Assembly: GCA_016926505.1 (NCBI GenBank)
Contig: JAFGOM010000022.1
Coordinates: 1-44,673 of the forward strand
Length of the DNA: 44,673 bases
Direction: 5' to 3'
Origin: Methanospirillaceae archaeon
GTDB lineage: Archaea > Halobacteriota > Methanomicrobia > Methanomicrobiales > Methanospirillaceae
A program made the translations under genes and the position numbers. The notes below the pieces were generated by a model. The model was not told the origin of the DNA. It ran no database searches and saw nothing but the letters and a program-made list of their open reading frames with translations. Positions 1-6,450 of this stretch are shown here, piece after piece. How positions within the stretch are numbered: the stretch's first letter is position 1; every line of letters begins with the position of its first letter.

Positions 1-305
1 AATTGACGTTACCGAAAGGGCAACTTGGTTTTATGTCGCCATTTGTCTGGATGTTTATATCTTCATATGAAAAATTGCGATTATTCCTGATAGAAAAGAA
101 AACAATTATTTCTTTAATTCAATTAGAATATTCTGGTTTTGAAGGAGCTACTGTCCCTATCTGTTCTTTTACCATAGAGAATTATTACAATCCAATATTT
201 AAAGGATCATACATTCGTCTCTCTGAATTTAGAGGTGCAGAGAATCAAGGCCCAAAAACCCTCGAGATTATTAAAAATTACAATACCTATCTTATGGGGG
301 CATAA
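1..305 (+). CDS. pglX: BREX methyltransferase PglX, upstream fragment (5' partial, ends early)
   Basis: The reading frame is open from the window edge (first full codon at 3) to TAA at 303. It matches the part of type 1 BREX PglX just after the methyltransferase catalytic motifs: SPFVWMFISSYEKLR, LEYSGFEGATVPIC and RGAENQGPKTLE are hallmark stretches. PglX is an adenine-specific DNA methyltransferase that marks host DNA and is needed for phage exclusion. A normal PglX of about 1,200 residues would run straight on into FYRA..DF.KIPGSPIAYW; here the frame leaves the homology after LEIIKN and stops 7 codons later. The missing continuation is found at 2118. The DNA is AT-rich compared with the genes downstream. 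The real start lies outside the window. Whether this half is still a working catalytic subunit cannot be told from sequence alone. Confidence 0.85.
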   Translation, partial: LTLPKGQLGFMSPFVWMFISSYEKLRLFLIEKKTIISLIQLEYSGFEGATVPICSFTIENYYNPIFKGSYIRLSEFRGAENQGPKTLEIIKNYNTYLMGA

Positions 306-1765
306 CCATCCTCTCTCCATCAGAACTCATCAGCCAGCCGGAAGGAAAAACGCTTGAGTTCAAGAGAGATCTGTCTTCTCCCAAAAATATCGTAAAGACC
401 ATCGTCGCTTTTGCCAACACCGCAGGGGGCAGGATTATTATCGGGGTTGCGGATGGTTCTCATGCCATCACCGGTGTTGCTGATCCCCTTGACGAGGAGG
501 AACGGCTCTGCAACCTGATTGCTGACTCGATTGCTCCACGACTGGTCCCGGATATAGATCTTCTCTCCATCGACGATAAAACGCTTCTCCTGGTTCAGGT
601 TTATCCGAGTGGAGGGCGGCCTCATTTCCTGAAAAAGGAAGGATCGGCGGAGGGAGTATACGTCAGGCTTGGGTCAACCAACCGGAAGGCGGATCGTGAG
701 TTGATTGCTGAGCTCTCGCGGACCAGCTCAGGAATCTCGTATGATGAACTCCCCATGCCTGATCTCTCAGAGGAAGATCTTGACATCGAGGCAGCCAGGA
801 AGAATTTTTCCGGGATTCATGAACTCACCCGGGAAGAACTGTTTACCCTCAAACTTCTGGTCAAAGATCAGGGAAGGGATGTTCCTGTCCATGGTTCCAT
901 GCTGCTCTATGGGAAAAGACGTGATTACTTCTTCCCGGATGCCTGGGTCCAGTGTGGTCGGTTTATGGGAGAAGACAAGGCATACATCTTTGACCATATC
1001 GATATTCATGACCACCTACCCGATGCAGTGGAGAGTATCATCCTGTTTCTGAAGAAACATGCCATGAGAGGTGCTGATTTCTCTGATATCAGGCGAAAGG
1101 ATATCTGGAGTATTCCGCTCACCATCCTTCGGGAAGTTATCATCAACGCTCTTGTCCATGCAGATTATTCACAGACAGGAGCACCTATCCGGGTAATGTT
1201 CTTCGATGACAGGATAGAGATAGAAAATCCCGGTATCCTCCTCCCGGGCATGACCATTGAGGATGTGAAATCAGGCGTATCAAAGATTCGGAACCGGGTT
1301 ATTGCACGGGTGTTTCGGGAACTGGGCCTTATCGAGCAGTGGGGAAGCGGATTTCGGCGGATTCTTCGGGAGGCTCTAGATCTGGGAATTTCCGAACCGG
1401 TTATCGAAGAGATCGGGATGCGGGTCAGAGTTACAGTTTTTCTGGCAGAAGAACTGGCGATTCACGCCGAGGGACTAAGTCGGGACCAAGTAGGGACTGA
1501 GTCGGGACTAAGTCCTCCAATCGGGGACCGGGTTGATCTGAATCATGAGCAGCGTCTGGTTCTCCAAGCTTGTATCCTGGAGTCTGGAATTACGGAACTG
1601 ATGGCAGTGGTACACAGAACCAACCGGACCAAGTTTAGGGAGGCCGTGATTAATCCATTGTTGGACCAAGGACTGTTGGAAATGACGATTCCAGATAAAC
1701 CGCAGAGCAGTAGGCAGAAATACCGGCTTACACTGAAAGGTAAGGATCTCCTAGGAATGCATTGA
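302..1765 (+). CDS. AlbA_2 / HATPase / winged-helix regulator-like protein, without a normal start codon
   Basis: The frame is open from 275 to TGA at 1763. Residues about 1-130 form an AlbA_2 (Schlafen-like) domain with LEFKRDLSSPKNI, FANTAGGRIIIGVADG and VYVRLGSTNRKADRELI. A HATPase_c_4-like region follows (REVIINALVHADYS, IENPGILLPGMT, EQWGSGFRRI), then a linker built of repeats and a C-terminal winged helix. Such proteins are common near restriction and other defence loci and are usually taken as regulators. No ATG, GTG or TTG lies between the in-frame stop at 272 and the domain start; the first family-like residues are TILSPSELIS, preceded by ATA at 302. TTG at 701 is the first ordinary start but would remove the whole AlbA_2 domain. 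Either the start was lost, or the G5 run at 296-300 has shifted frame (G6 would join ATG 294 to this frame), or a non-standard start is used. Possibly a pseudogene. Confidence 0.75.
   Translation: MTILSPSELISQPEGKTLEFKRDLSSPKNIVKTIVAFANTAGGRIIIGVADGSHAITGVADPLDEEERLCNLIADSIAPRLVPDIDLLSIDDKTLLLVQVYPSGGRPHFLKKEGSAEGVYVRLGSTNRKADRELIAELSRTSSGISYDELPMPDLSEEDLDIEAARKNFSGIHELTREELFTLKLLVKDQGRDVPVHGSMLLYGKRRDYFFPDAWVQCGRFMGEDKAYIFDHIDIHDHLPDAVESIILFLKKHAMRGADFSDIRRKDIWSIPLTILREVIINALVHADYSQTGAPIRVMFFDDRIEIENPGILLPGMTIEDVKSGVSKIRNRVIARVFRELGLIEQWGSGFRRILREALDLGISEPVIEEIGMRVRVTVFLAEELAIHAEGLSRDQVGTESGLSPPIGDRVDLNHEQRLVLQACILESGITELMAVVHRTNRTKFREAVINPLLDQGLLEMTIPDKPQSSRQKYRLTLKGKDLLGMH
1471..1514 (+). 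repeat. Four tandem 11-bp repeats inside the AlbA_2 regulator gene
   Basis: The units are GGGACTAAGTC (1471-1481), GGGACCAAGTA (1482-1492), GGGACTGAGTC (1493-1503) and GGGACTAAGTC (1504-1514). The first and last units are identical. The array encodes the linker between the HATPase-like region and the C-terminal winged helix. Because 11 is not a multiple of 3, gain or loss of one or two units would shift the reading frame. Confidence 0.9.
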
Positions 1766-1775
1766 ATGTCAAGGA

Positions 1776-2072
1776 ATGAATGGTATGAATTTTTATCCCT
1801 TCCAGAATTTTGTCACTCCCCGGGTAGCCAATTCACTATCTCAACAGGATGTCAGGATGTGTGATGACCTCTGTATCACACCGGATGATAACCCGACTAT
1901 CAGTCTTATTCATTGTACTGACACAACCGAAAGAGTTGCAAGATATTCGATACTGCATGAACAAAAACAGATCTTTGCATCGAAGTATATGCTCTATCTT
2001 TCATCAGAAGAGGAACAGACAGCAGAAATTATCTGGGAACGTAAGCTGAGTGAAGGGAAGGAGATGTCGTGA
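1776..2072 (+). pseudogene. C-terminal fragment of a DUF1016 (YhcG-like, PDDEXK) nuclease
   Basis: This 98-residue frame begins at ATG 1776 with a plausible AAGGA box at 1770. The second half (DDNPTISLIHC, then ARYSILHEQKQIFASKYMLYL) matches the end of the DUF1016/YhcG PDDEXK nuclease family, where PTIGLILC..K and ASKY.LYLP.EEE are typical. Full members are about 350 residues, so the N-terminal and most of the nuclease core are missing. Residues about 8-35 look scrambled relative to the family, suggesting an internal rearrangement or a local frame change. It follows the AlbA_2 gene by 10 nt and precedes the second half of pglX by 45 nt. I regard it as a remnant; expression as a small protein is possible but unproven. 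Confidence 0.6.
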
Positions 2073-2103
2073 GTAATAGTAGTATTCAGTTATGTTTTTT
2101 AAT

Positions 2104-2120
2104 ATGAGGTGATAGTGATG
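2104..2120 (+). promoter_or_regulatory. Strong ribosome binding site deciding the start of the pglX second half
   Basis: GAGGTGAT at 2106-2113 stands four bases before ATG 2118, a strong match to the archaeal 16S rRNA 3' end. It shows that the second pglX half has its own translation start. The same GAGGTGATAGT box precedes the desulforedoxin gene at 39181. Confidence 0.7.
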
Positions 2121-3791
2121 GCAGATATAAAAACCAATAATCCGGTTCCGAATTTTTATCGTGCTTCTGCAGAGGATTTTAGGAAGATTCCGGGTAGTCC
2201 GATAGCGTATTGGGTGAGTGATAAATTTTCATCTATTTTTGAGAATAAAAAAGTCAGTGATTTCCTCACATCTGAAGGCCAAATTATTACCGGTAATAAT
2301 GAGAAATTTTTACGATTTTTTTGGGAAGTTGCTCAAAATTTAATTGGAAAGAACGGAGAATGGAAATTACACCATAAAGGGGGATTATATAGGAAATGGT
2401 ATGGAAATGTTGAATGGGTTGTTGATTGGAGTGAAATAAGTAGAGAGTTTTATAAAAAGGATAATACTGCCAGAATACCAAAGGAAGAATTTTGGGATCT
2501 TCTTGGAATAACTTGGTCTACTATTTCTTCATCAAAGATATCATTTCGAAAAGTTCATGTTAATGAAAGTTATAATAAGGCCTCACCAACATTAAGTAGT
2601 TCAAATGAAGGATTAATAGATTTTTTACTTGCGTATTTAAATACAAATATTATTTCTCATACATTATACATCATTAATCCAACATTAAATTATTTGGTAA
2701 AAGATGTTGAAATACTTCCAGTAAATTCAAAATTATTACTTCAAAAAGCAGTATTAGAGGATTCTAAATCTTGTTTATTAATCTCCAAAACCGACTGGAA
2801 CTCATACGAGACCTCCTGGGACTTTGCGACCCTCCCTCTTATCAGCCCTGATTATCTTTCCCCAACCATAGAAACCTCATACAAAAAACTCCGCAGCAAC
2901 TGGCAGGAGATGACAGATGAGATGAAAGAACTCGAGGAGGAGAACAACCGGATCTTCATCGAGGCCTACGGTCTGGAAGATGAACTCACCCCCGAAGTCC
3001 CGCTCTCCGAGATAACCCTCACCTGCAACCCCCATTACCGGTATAACAGCAATAAATCAGAAGAAGAACTCGAGTCCCTCCTCCTCACCGATACCGTAAA
3101 AGAGCTCATCTCTTATGCAGTCGGGTGCATGGTCGGGCGGTATGGGCTTGATAAACCAGGACTCATCCTTGCCAACCAGGGCGAGACTGTCGGGGATTAT
3201 CTCAGTCAGGTTCCCAATCCCACCTTCCCCCCGGACGACGACAATATTATCCCCATCCTTGACGACGAGTACTTCACCGATGACATCGTGTCCCGGTTCA
3301 AGGAGTTCTTAAAAGTCGTATTTGGCAAAGAGACCCTCTCCCAGAACCTTGACTTCATTGCCAAAGCCCTGACCGGTAAAACAACATCTTCTCCTGAAAA
3401 GGTCATCAGGGACTACTTCCTCAAGGACTTTTACAAGGACCACGTGCAGCGGTACAAAAAACGGCCGATATACTGGATCTTCTCATCAGGAAAACAGCAG
3501 GGCTTTAATGCTCTCATCTACATGCACCGGTACAACAAGACCACACTCGCCAAGATGAGGACCGATTACCTCCTTGAACTCCAGGCAAAACTCGATGCAG
3601 AACTATCCATCCTGTTAGGAGATCCGGCAAAGAATAAGATCCGGATCACGAGAATCAAAAACCAACTCGAAGAGATGAAAAGCTACGACGAACTCCTCAA
3701 CAACAAGGCACTCGCAATGATAGAAATAGACCTTGACGACGGGGTCGTAGTCAATTACGCGAAATTTGAAGGACTCGTTCGGAAGATATGA
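2118..3791 (+). CDS. pglX: BREX methyltransferase PglX, C-terminal half with target-recognition region
   Basis: About 557 residues from ATG 2118. The first 40 residues (FYRASAEDFRKIPGSPIAYW) pick up PglX almost exactly where the fragment at 1-305 leaves off. LLGITWSTISSSKIS and LYIINPTLNYLVKDVEILPV are the usual landmarks around the target-recognition domain. The C-terminal third has a helical region around NRIFIEAYGLEDEL and RPIYWIFSSGKQQGF, both strongly conserved in BREX PglX. It contains no AdoMet-binding motif, so alone it cannot methylate; it could act as a specificity subunit if paired with the upstream half. DNA up to about 2785 is very AT-rich (2641-2700 has 11 G+C in 60) and switches abruptly to GC-rich DNA (3121-3180 has 35 in 60). 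pglZ follows after 40 nt. Confidence 0.9.
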   Translation: MADIKTNNPVPNFYRASAEDFRKIPGSPIAYWVSDKFSSIFENKKVSDFLTSEGQIITGNNEKFLRFFWEVAQNLIGKNGEWKLHHKGGLYRKWYGNVEWVVDWSEISREFYKKDNTARIPKEEFWDLLGITWSTISSSKISFRKVHVNESYNKASPTLSSSNEGLIDFLLAYLNTNIISHTLYIINPTLNYLVKDVEILPVNSKLLLQKAVLEDSKSCLLISKTDWNSYETSWDFATLPLISPDYLSPTIETSYKKLRSNWQEMTDEMKELEEENNRIFIEAYGLEDELTPEVPLSEITLTCNPHYRYNSNKSEEELESLLLTDTVKELISYAVGCMVGRYGLDKPGLILANQGETVGDYLSQVPNPTFPPDDDNIIPILDDEYFTDDIVSRFKEFLKVVFGKETLSQNLDFIAKALTGKTTSSPEKVIRDYFLKDFYKDHVQRYKKRPIYWIFSSGKQQGFNALIYMHRYNKTTLAKMRTDYLLELQAKLDAELSILLGDPAKNKIRITRIKNQLEEMKSYDELLNNKALAMIEIDLDDGVVVNYAKFEGLVRKI

Positions 3792-3831: not shown

Positions 3832-6450
3832 ATGTCCATTCTCAGCATCGAGAAGACCACTGCTGCAATCCTTGCAAAATTCCGGAACCTATCCGACTTT
3901 GAGACCCGCAAAATAGTCTTCTGGTACGACGCAGAACAGACGGCAAGCAAAGAAGACCTGAGTCAGATCACAGAGACACTCTCACAGCATAAAATCCTCG
4001 TGCATATCCTCAAAGACAACATCTTTGCAACCAAGAAACTCCTCGAACACGATGATATCACCTCCTCATACCTTGTCTACTCTCCTGCACCCGAACCCGT
4101 GTATGAAAAAAACTGGCTGCTTGACATCCAGCTCTACTCTGACCGGTTTGAGAGCAGCAGAGTATCAGACCTTAAAACCGAGATAGGGATCGAAGGGTAT
4201 ACCTTTGATCCCTTCCTTGAGAAACACCAGAAGTTCTTTGCCAGTAAAAAGCGGGTCAATACTTTTAAAAAGTTCTATGATAACGATTGGAGAGAAGACG
4301 ATCTGATTAAAGGAATGATAACCGTTCTATCAGGAGCAACGGCCCCCGAAGAGCGGGAGATCATCAAAAAAATCCTCCTTGGCTCACTCTCTGAAGACGA
4401 AAACCCCCTGTATGAAGAACTCAAACGATATGACCTGGCCGAATCCTTCTGGAAGATCGCACGAAAGACATTCGGGTTTTACACCGAGCCTCCTACTCTT
4501 AAAAAACTCTTTATCTCCTTACTCATCACCCATATCGACCGGCATGCAGATCTTGACCTGAAAAACCTAACCCCATTCATCAACAAGAAACGGCAGGAGA
4601 ACGAATGTGAGATATTCATCTCTGGCTGGATGAACCATATCAACGATGCTGCCAGGTTTGATGAATACTGCCGGATACTCCTTGAGGAACAGGATAAAAA
4701 AATCGAGAAAGAGCTTGAAAACACCCTGGAAGATACGCAGGTTGAGTGGTACCTCTCTGTTGAAGCACCGGATATCTTTGATAAACAGATCATCAGGACC
4801 ATAGTTACCACCCTCTATGATGGCGGAAAGGATTATGACCAGTACCTCGAATGGATAAAAGCCAGAAAAACAAGACATTATTTCCGGAAATTTAAGGATA
4901 TCTACTGTGCCCTTACCAATGCCATCGAGCTGATTCGGATCTCAGAGAAAATTTTTGACGAATATATCTATCCAAAAACCCCTACAGAACTCTTCAATAA
5001 ATACACCGAATCGTATTATCTCATTGATCTCTATTACCGGAAATTCTACCTCTTTTATGACCGGACAATTGATAAAGAGATTTTAAAGATCGGGATCCGT
5101 GAGCAGGTAGAACGACAGTACAAAATGATAACCGAGAAGATCCTCATGAAATGGAGCGATCTTCTCGTGGCACACTCACAAAACAGATGGGGAATCGAAC
5201 TCATCGATAACCAGGGAGAATTCTTTTCCACATATATCACAAAGATCCTCTCCCGGAATGACCGGGATAAGGTTGCCGTCATCATCTCTGATGCCCTCCG
5301 GTACGAGATAGCAATGGAACTAAAAGACGTGCTGAACAAAAGCACCAACGGTACCATTGAGATAGAGACCATGGCCGGATGCCTTCCGTCCTATACCCGC
5401 CTTGGCATGGCATCGCTCCTCCCGCACAAGCAACTCGCCTACCACAAAGACCGGATCCTTGTAGACGGAACTGAATCCGATGGCATTGAAAACCGGAGAA
5501 AAATTCTGACACGTTTTGAGAAAGAATCAGTTGCCTTCTCATTCAAGGAATTTTCCCATCAAAAAACCGAACAGGCCCGGGAGAGGGTGAAAGGAAAACG
5601 AGTTATTTATATCTACCACAACCAGATAGACGAGACCGGAGATAGTCTTGGATCCGAAGATGAGGTATTCAAAGCCGCTGATAATGCAATCCATGAACTG
5701 GATATGATGGTAAACCGCCTTGCCAGGTCAGTCAACATCAGTAACGTAATCATCACCGCTGACCATGGATTTCTCTATACCCGTGACTCGCTTGAATGTA
5801 TCGATCTCATAGAGACTGATATCGATAAAGAAGAGATAATAACCTCAAATAAACGGTTTATCATCACCGCTCAAAAGACAGACCTTCCCAATACCCATCG
5901 GTTCGAACTCAACATCCCATCAGACTCACAAAAGCCGCTCTTTATCTATACTCCCTATGCTGACCTCAGATTCAAAATGGCAGGGGGAGGAAGAAACTTC
6001 GTCCATGGAGGATTATCACTGCAGGAGATAGCAATTCCGGTCCTGCTTTATAATCACACAAAATCATTATCAGAACTTGACCGGAAAGGAATCGGTTATG
6101 GAAAGGTTGGTATCACAATTATCGGTCAGACAAGAAAGATAACCAGCAATCCGTTCCGGATAACACTCTTCCAGACCGAGAACGTCACCGATAAACGCGG
6201 GCCGCTCCGGTGCAAGATTGCACTGTATGATAATTCCGGAGAGCGGGTGAGTGATGAGAAGACGATTATCGCTGACAAAAATGAAGATAACCCTGACCAG
6301 CGGATGATTGAGATAACCCTGACCATGAACAGTACCATAAAGAACGGTATCTACATTATCAGGGCAATCGATGAAGATGAGAAGGCTACCTTTCAGGACG
6401 TGCTTGAGATACCGGTACAAGTAGATATTTTAATTATTGATGATTTTTAA
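3832..6450 (+). CDS. pglZ: BREX protein PglZ
   Basis: 872 residues, a normal length for type 1 BREX PglZ. The N-terminus (RKIVFWYDAEQ) is typical of the family. The alkaline-phosphatase-like PglZ domain is visible from about residue 479: VAVIISDALRYEIAMEL carries the first metal-binding Asp, MAGCLPSYTRLGMASLLPH follows, and VIITADHGFLYTRD (about 640) supplies the Asp-His pair. PglZ is required for BREX defence and works together with PglX; its exact substrate is not settled. The start at ATG 3832 is supported by AGGAGAG a few bases upstream. It lies 40 nt after pglX and 15 nt before brxL, so the three are likely one transcript. No frameshift or missing segment is seen. Confidence 0.95.
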   Translation: MSILSIEKTTAAILAKFRNLSDFETRKIVFWYDAEQTASKEDLSQITETLSQHKILVHILKDNIFATKKLLEHDDITSSYLVYSPAPEPVYEKNWLLDIQLYSDRFESSRVSDLKTEIGIEGYTFDPFLEKHQKFFASKKRVNTFKKFYDNDWREDDLIKGMITVLSGATAPEEREIIKKILLGSLSEDENPLYEELKRYDLAESFWKIARKTFGFYTEPPTLKKLFISLLITHIDRHADLDLKNLTPFINKKRQENECEIFISGWMNHINDAARFDEYCRILLEEQDKKIEKELENTLEDTQVEWYLSVEAPDIFDKQIIRTIVTTLYDGGKDYDQYLEWIKARKTRHYFRKFKDIYCALTNAIELIRISEKIFDEYIYPKTPTELFNKYTESYYLIDLYYRKFYLFYDRTIDKEILKIGIREQVERQYKMITEKILMKWSDLLVAHSQNRWGIELIDNQGEFFSTYITKILSRNDRDKVAVIISDALRYEIAMELKDVLNKSTNGTIEIETMAGCLPSYTRLGMASLLPHKQLAYHKDRILVDGTESDGIENRRKILTRFEKESVAFSFKEFSHQKTEQARERVKGKRVIYIYHNQIDETGDSLGSEDEVFKAADNAIHELDMMVNRLARSVNISNVIITADHGFLYTRDSLECIDLIETDIDKEEIITSNKRFIITAQKTDLPNTHRFELNIPSDSQKPLFIYTPYADLRFKMAGGGRNFVHGGLSLQEIAIPVLLYNHTKSLSELDRKGIGYGKVGITIIGQTRKITSNPFRITLFQTENVTDKRGPLRCKIALYDNSGERVSDEKTIIADKNEDNPDQRMIEITLTMNSTIKNGIYIIRAIDEDEKATFQDVLEIPVQVDILIIDDF

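What the first reader, a model, noticed from the sequence alone, without database searches (positions are those of the whole stretch)
1..3791. PglX of a BREX system split into two separately translated halves
The frame at 1-305 ends within conserved PglX sequence (ENQGPKTLE) and the frame at 2118 resumes at FYRA..DFRKIPGSPIAYW, which directly follows in intact PglX. The break falls near the border between the methyltransferase core and the target-recognition part. The second half has a strong ribosome binding site and an ATG, and pglZ and brxL downstream are intact. This could be a dead gene, but it could also be a two-subunit PglX resembling HsdM plus HsdS, with a regulator encoded between. 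A split that keeps both reading frames long and gives the second a good start is not what simple decay usually leaves.
Basis: partly seen in the sequence, partly recalled or inferred. Interest (0 to 1): 0.85.

Follow-up and report, generated by a model that had tools for sequence, protein, structure and literature searches.

The report
BREX methyltransferase split into two genes
In many archaea and a few bacteria the anti-virus BREX system encodes its DNA-marking enzyme as two proteins, one that methylates and one that reads the DNA sequence, often with extra defence genes slipped in between; this window holds one of those, not a broken gene.

Summary
The window is a whole contig starting inside pglX; contig C111 of the same genome overlaps its first 87 bases exactly and supplies the rest. 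The operon is brxB, brxC, pglX-N (609 aa), a Schlafen-AlbA_2/GHKL-ATPase/wHTH gene, a 98-aa YhcG remnant, pglX-C (557 aa), pglZ, brxL. N- and C-halves partition the BREX-1 PglX model exactly (6-653, 653-1209 of 1210), at the hinge between methyltransferase and target-recognition domains. The same split, frames intact, occurs in 12 other archaeal and two Pseudomonadota loci. The gene between varies: Schlafen, YhcG, a UG5-nitrilase reverse transcriptase, Schlafen plus PARIS-like genes, or nothing. A single origin is rejected (AU p = 4e-55). In split Methanosarcinaceae both halves are under purifying selection (dN/dS about 0.09) and sequence variability is confined to the recognition domain of pglX-C. 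Most likely this is a two-subunit PglX, working like HsdM plus HsdS, with the gap used as a slot for defence genes. Subunit assembly is inferred, not shown. No split PglX was found in the literature searched, including a 2026 BREX survey.

The parts
1..305 (+). 3' end (last 100 codons) of pglX-N, the methyltransferase half; the other 509 codons lie on contig C111 (L052:6170-7694)
   Evidence: Exact 87-b overlap with C111, one 609-aa frame; BREX-1 PglX model NF033452 positions 6-653 for the homologous half in L003
302..1765 (+). Schlafen-AlbA_2 / HATPase_c_4 (GHKL) / Fic-like_C wHTH gene in the slot; first codon ATA overlapping the pglX-N stop (ATAA)
   Evidence: Three Pfam domains; 63-65% identity to the gene in the same place in four other loci; start context. 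E14, E19 and D51 are invariant and are tentatively matched, by order and by the E-E spacing only, to the E205/E210/D248 active site of SLFN13. RNase activity not tested; AF2 model of this protein unusable (pLDDT 41)
1776..2072 (+). 98-aa ORF, remnant of a YhcG/DUF1016 PD-(D/E)XK nuclease gene (C-terminal part only)
   Evidence: YhcG_C E 1.9e-9 over 54 residues; 64% identical to the C-terminus of the full 449-codon YhcG frame in the slot of G246
2106..2113 (+). ribosome-binding-site-like GAGGTGAT before the pglX-C start
   Evidence: Sequence
2118..3791 (+). pglX-C, the recognition half: target-recognition domain about 2169-2762, spacer and C-terminal domain about 2763-3788
   Evidence: NF033452 positions 653-1209; AF2 model's only significant PDB matches are PglX/BrxX; segment conservation
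3832..6450 (+). pglZ
   Evidence: TIGR02687, 766 bits
6466..8523 (+). brxL
   Evidence: TIGR02653, 1175 bits

Best explanation
This is a type I BREX operon whose PglX is made as two subunits. PglX-N (N-terminal bundle plus SAM-binding methyltransferase) and PglX-C (target-recognition domain, spacer, C-terminal domain) are encoded by two genes and should reassemble across the former hinge into one methyltransferase, as HsdM and HsdS do. PglX-C supplies most of the site recognition; PglX-N supplies catalysis and probably the contact to the last base. The gap between the two genes serves as a slot for defence genes, most often a Schlafen-type putative RNase with a GHKL ATPase and wHTH. Shown here: the split, its position, its recurrence, intact frames, coupled gene starts and (on related loci) purifying selection. 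Inferred: physical assembly, methylation activity, and the middle gene's role as a backup effector.
For: Exact partition of the PglX model at the hinge with nothing lost. Same split intact in 12 other archaeal loci: ten with the Schlafen gene, G246 with a full YhcG frame, G114 with no gene between; and in two Pseudomonadota loci with a UG5-nitrilase RT or Schlafen plus AriA/AriB-like genes. pglX-N stop overlaps the next start as ATGA or TAATG behind GGAGG/AGAGG in nine archaeal loci. dN/dS 0.083-0.098 for N and the C-terminal domain, 0.42 for the TRD, in nine split Methanosarcinaceae loci. In these loci N is 82-86% identical while the TRD is 36% (fused Methanosarcina: last ~100 residues of N only 39%), so variability is confined to pglX-C. 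Split loci are not one clade (AU p 3.6e-55; three bacterial ones p 2e-6), so the hinge was cut repeatedly. The C-part of fused L005 groups with that of split G403 while their N-parts do not, suggesting C-halves are interchangeable between forms. Published DALI search: the PglX C-terminal domain alone resembles type I specificity subunits (PMC11341690).
Against: No direct evidence of a complex, of methylation or of expression. In this genome the middle gene lacks a standard start codon and the YhcG gene is a remnant, so the slot contents are partly worn. G023, the nearest relative, has the split with both the Schlafen gene and pglX-C broken by insertions, and G1233 is a decayed split, so some split systems do die. 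Selection was measured on related loci, not on the window's own genes. A single archaeal origin is possible (AU p 0.28), so the archaeal loci are not all independent evidence.
Confidence: 0.86

Rival explanations
1. A dead pglX: an insertion disrupted the gene and the two long frames are leftovers of recent decay.
For: Other interrupted PglX genes exist in the data set (G162, G342); G023 and G1233 are visibly damaged; the window's middle gene lacks ATG and its YhcG is a fragment.
Against: The same breakpoint with intact frames recurs in 12 other archaeal and two bacterial loci; dN/dS about 0.09 in both halves of related split loci; coupled starts; no residue of the PglX model is lost at the break; pglZ and brxL intact.
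Confidence: 0.08
2. The halves work apart: PglX-N pairs with another specificity protein and PglX-C acts as a DNA-binding factor on its own.
For: They are separate genes with separate starts.
Against: The halves stay side by side in one operon in every split locus found; each lacks what the other has; published PglX NTD alone does not bind DNA (PMC11341690). No second specificity gene stands in these operons except the L004 tandem.
Confidence: 0.04
3. The two frames are joined into one protein by frameshifting, hopping or trans-splicing.
For: Frames overlap closely at the pglX-N/middle-gene border, with a GGGGG run in the window.
Against: pglX-C has its own start codon in the loci read; the gene between can be 1,008 aa and varies in kind; no intein-like domain was reported by Pfam for either half; G114 has no gene between but still has a stop and a new start.
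Confidence: 0.02

Closest known systems
Type I BREX PglX/BrxX (Salmonella 8C45/8Q56, E. coli 9EWZ; NF033452)
   Same: Both halves are clear homologues; the same domains in the same order; same operon partners brxB, brxC, pglZ, brxL
   Different: Known PglX is one chain of about 1,200 aa; here it is two genes, cut at the hinge, with other genes between
Type I restriction-modification HsdM plus HsdS
   Same: Separate methyltransferase and specificity genes; conserved M and variable S; overlapping start/stop coupling as in EcoKI (PMC3510504); Schlafen/AlbA_2 and YhcG genes also stand in the hsdM-hsdS gap of related archaea
   Different: By sequence this is PglX, not HsdM/HsdS; no HsdR in the BREX operon; one TRD per PglX-C rather than two; stoichiometry unknown
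BREX-associated Schlafen RNase with minimal histidine kinase and wHTH (PMC12839542)
   Same: Same domain order; close to BREX core genes; relatives at 55-63% identity stand before an intact pglX in Azotobacter and G062
   Different: Here it lies inside pglX, between the two halves
PADLOC half-length PglX models PDLC02525 (607 aa) and PDLC02516 (593 aa)
   Same: PDLC02525 is the best match of the N-halves and PDLC02516 the second best of the C-half, so automatic clustering has already grouped such proteins
   Different: They are labelled only 'PglX'; no statement that PglX can be two subunits
Fused EcoKI M-S and type IB systems (PMC3510504)
   Same: Shows that moving or removing the M/S border can keep a functional enzyme
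   Different: Engineered fusion in type I R-M; here natural fission in BREX

Membership tests
Type I BREX | brxC, pglX, pglZ and brxL in one operon, with brxB | tested here: met
   brxB PF08747, brxC NF033441, both PglX halves NF033452, pglZ TIGR02687, brxL TIGR02653, joined across an exact 87-b contig overlap
Type I BREX | brxA upstream of brxB | tested here: inconclusive
   The three frames read upstream on C111 gave ARPP-1, HARE-HTH and an unscanned short frame, no BrxA; rest of the genome not searched for BrxA
Type I BREX | PglX as one chain | tested here: not met
   Two frames, 609 and 557 aa, separated by 1.8 kb
Type I BREX | m6A on a non-palindromic 6-bp site | not testable with these tools
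   No methylome data available
PglX/BrxX | SAM motif GxG and catalytic NPPY | tested here: met
   DPACGSG and NPPY in the C111 part of pglX-N
PglX/BrxX | TRD, spacer helices and C-terminal domain | tested here: met
   Model positions 653-1209 covered; Foldseek to 9EWZ and 8C45 at E about 1e-24, on an AF2 model of moderate confidence
Type I R-M (HsdM/HsdS) | HsdM_N and Methylase_S (PF01420) domains | tested here: not met
   Pfam scan of the halves gives Eco57I/MmeI_Mtase/N6_Mtase for N and no family for C
Type I R-M (HsdM/HsdS) | separate M and S subunits that assemble | not testable with these tools
   Gene arrangement matches; assembly needs protein work
BREX auxiliary Schlafen effector | SLFN_AlbA_2, GHKL ATPase and wHTH domains beside BREX core genes | tested here: met
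   PF04326, PF13749, PF21247; inside the BREX operon
BREX auxiliary Schlafen effector | RNase active site and activity | tested here: inconclusive
   Conserved E14, E19, D51 fit the SLFN13 triad by order and E-E spacing only; activity not testable here

The most novel reading that the evidence does not exclude
The split gives BREX an exchangeable specificity subunit. One PglX-N could serve several PglX-C proteins, as hinted by an archaeal-type contig with two ATGA-coupled pglX-C genes in tandem (L004). Defence genes lodged between the halves would be held in check by the assembled complex and released when anti-restriction proteins disturb it, as PrrC is by its type I host system. Fission at the PglX hinge would be a repeated evolutionary route for loading BREX with backup effectors.
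Probability: 0.3. Interest if true: 0.85.

Novelty: new variant of a known kind. Interest (0 to 1): 0.72.

Why it matters
PglX is treated as one monomeric enzyme that both reads and marks DNA. A natural, recurrent two-subunit form would show that its methyltransferase and recognition parts can be separated and perhaps mixed, offer a simple way to reprogram BREX by exchanging pglX-C, and tie BREX more closely to type I restriction. It also marks a defined slot in BREX operons where other defence genes collect (Schlafen, YhcG, UG5-nitrilase RT, PARIS-like), and warns that annotation pipelines may read such loci as broken or as two pglX genes.

Tried and rejected
Recent disabling insertion: rejected by the many intact loci with the same split. 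Contig-edge artefact: rejected by the exact 87-base join to C111 and by the same layout in single-contig genomes (G057, G285, G114). A second copy or rearranged version as the cause of the contig break: a search of the own genome with window 1-310 found only the two contig ends. The C86 homologue (1,114 aa, 30% identity) as the missing N-half: rejected, it is a separate full-length relative. The middle gene as a mere stray from an hsd locus: its closest relatives found sit in BREX operons. Bacterial origin of L004 (Cloacimonadota MAG): doubted, because the other Cloacimonadota PglX frames found are continuous and its TRD is 85% identical to that of archaeal G246.
Full report
WHAT IS THERE. The window is contig C23 of its genome and begins inside pglX. 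Searching the same genome with a relative's N-half found contig C111, whose PglX frame runs to its last base. The last 87 bases of C111 equal the first 87 of the window, and these are the only two places with that sequence. Joined, pglX-N is one open frame of 609 aa with the motifs DPACGSG and NPPY. The operon reads brxB (PF08747), brxC, pglX-N, a Schlafen-AlbA_2/HATPase_c_4/wHTH gene (302-1765), a 98-aa YhcG_C remnant (1776-2072), pglX-C (2118-3791), pglZ, brxL.

WHERE IT IS CUT. Against the NCBI model of BREX-1 PglX (1,210 positions) the N-half of relative L003 covers 6-653 and the window's C-half 653-1209; nothing is lost between them. The cut corresponds to the hinge between the methyltransferase and target-recognition domains of solved PglX/BrxX (PMC11341690, PMC11842806). 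In fused relatives the text runs on directly, e.g. ENQSPKTLEAIKNPKCGWFYRASATDFKKIPG in L102. The AF2 model of PglX-C is only of moderate confidence (pLDDT 65), but its only significant PDB matches are BrxX and PglX (E about 1e-22 to 1e-24).

IT IS NOT ONE BROKEN GENE. Of 393 genomes of the phylum, 27 carry a PglX-C match at E<=1e-30. Ten, the window's among them, have an intact hinge split; nine have a continuous PglX of about 1,150-1,190 aa; the rest are partial, interrupted or distant. Three further split loci (L003, L006, L008) came from the contig scan. So 12 intact archaeal loci besides the window are in hand: ten with the Schlafen gene between the halves, G246 with a full YhcG frame, and G114 with no gene between. 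The pglX-N stop overlaps the next start as ATGA (seven loci) or TAATG (two), behind GGAGG or AGAGG. In nine split Methanosarcinaceae loci dN/dS is 0.083-0.098 in the constant parts of both halves and 0.42 in the TRD; the Schlafen gene is at 0.145. These values are for related loci; the window's own genes were not measured.

BACTERIA, AND SEVERAL ORIGINS. Among 398 Pseudomonadota genomes 11 match, two with an intact split. G846 has a 1,008-aa UG5-nitrilase reverse transcriptase in the gap (PADLOC 1,019 bits). G666 has the Schlafen gene (56% identical to the window's) followed by AriA/AriB-like genes. One of six Desulfobacterota matches (G1233) is a decayed split with the Schlafen gene. The sampled plasmid hits I listed were all annotated as ordinary pglX or similar. 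On a tree of N-halves, one clade of all split loci is rejected (AU p = 3.6e-55), and so is one clade of the three bacterial ones (p = 2e-6); a single archaeal origin is not rejected (p = 0.28). The hinge has therefore been cut more than once, unless fused forms re-arose repeatedly. The C-part of fused L005 groups with that of split G403 although their N-parts do not, which suggests exchange between the two forms.

A CONSTANT SUBUNIT AND A VARIABLE ONE. Among split Methanosarcinaceae the median identities are 82% (N, residues 1-505), 86% (last ~100 of N), 36% (TRD) and 86% (C-terminal domain). In fused Methanosarcina they are 81, 39, 38 and 87%. In that split group the variability is thus confined to pglX-C, as expected of a specificity subunit. 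The window and G023 are exceptions: the last ~100 residues of their pglX-N are of other types, the window's 81% identical to that of a fused protein (L102). In E. coli BrxX a loop of the methyltransferase domain reads the sixth base pair (PMC11842806), so this difference may alter the site; that is inference.

THE MIDDLE GENE. It has SLFN_AlbA_2, GHKL ATPase and wHTH domains. A 2026 survey describes such proteins as auxiliary Schlafen RNase effectors linked to BREX and related systems in at least 1,017 taxa (PMC12839542). Close relatives stand before an intact pglX in Azotobacter (55%) and G062 (63%). In the window and G023 its frame opens with ATA overlapping the pglX-N stop, and in L006 with ATT, where others have ATG. 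Whether it is made in this genome is open.

PARALLEL WITH TYPE I R-M. In 20 type I loci fetched from relatives, Schlafen/AlbA_2 genes (L160, L168) or YhcG genes (L158, L159, L162, and L152 where the S gene looks broken) stand in the hsdM-hsdS gap (Pfam check of L158, L160, L162 and L168). EcoKI works with M and S separate or fused (PMC3510504). The same plan is seen here with PglX. It works like an M/S pair; by sequence it is PglX, not a member of the Hsd families.

NOVELTY. No paper found in the held library describes a split PglX; the main text of the 2026 survey does not contain the word 'split', and its supplements were not read. PADLOC already holds half-length PglX models without comment. 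The 2015 founding paper was not available, so an early remark cannot be excluded.

LIMITS. Assembly, activity and the middle gene's role are inferred. The hsd survey is a sample, not a statistic. N-halves may be mosaic, which could disturb the tree.

Noticed in passing
L004:1-2087: Two pglX-C genes in tandem, the second start overlapping the first stop (ATGA) on a 3-kb contig filed under a Cloacimonadota MAG but archaeal in type; possibly two specificity subunits for one PglX-N.
   Followed up: partly
window:294-310; L044:5118-5124; L006:5021-5036: The Schlafen gene opens with ATA (window, G023) or ATT (L006) at the place where relatives have ATG, directly behind an SD-like run; possible AUA/AUU starts under translational coupling, or lost starts.
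   Followed up: partly
window:1-305: The last ~100 residues of pglX-N are of a different type from most split relatives and about 80% identical to those of fused Methanosarcina-type PglX, suggesting recombination in a segment next to the hinge.
   Followed up: partly
L098 (G246), between the pglX halves: The slot holds a RhuM-like fragment, a degenerate tail resembling the Schlafen gene's C-terminus with many VTEQ-type repeats, and a full YhcG gene: layers of old cargo.
   Followed up: partly
L186 (G846), between the pglX halves: A UG5-nitrilase defence reverse transcriptase is encoded between pglX-N and pglX-C with an ATGA overlap.
   Followed up: yes
L011:6611-6613: PglX of Desulfobacteraceae Eth-SRB2 is interrupted by a single in-frame TGA inside the catalytic loop (NPPYMG*).
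   Followed up: no
L044 (G023): The nearest relative's operon has insertions in both the Schlafen gene and the start of pglX-C, so that system is probably dead.
   Followed up: partly
G000:C29 (L110): Same genome: a 7.3-kb contig with a second Schlafen-AlbA_2-type gene near a 557-aa frame weakly similar to PglX; another defence locus, not worked out.
   Followed up: no
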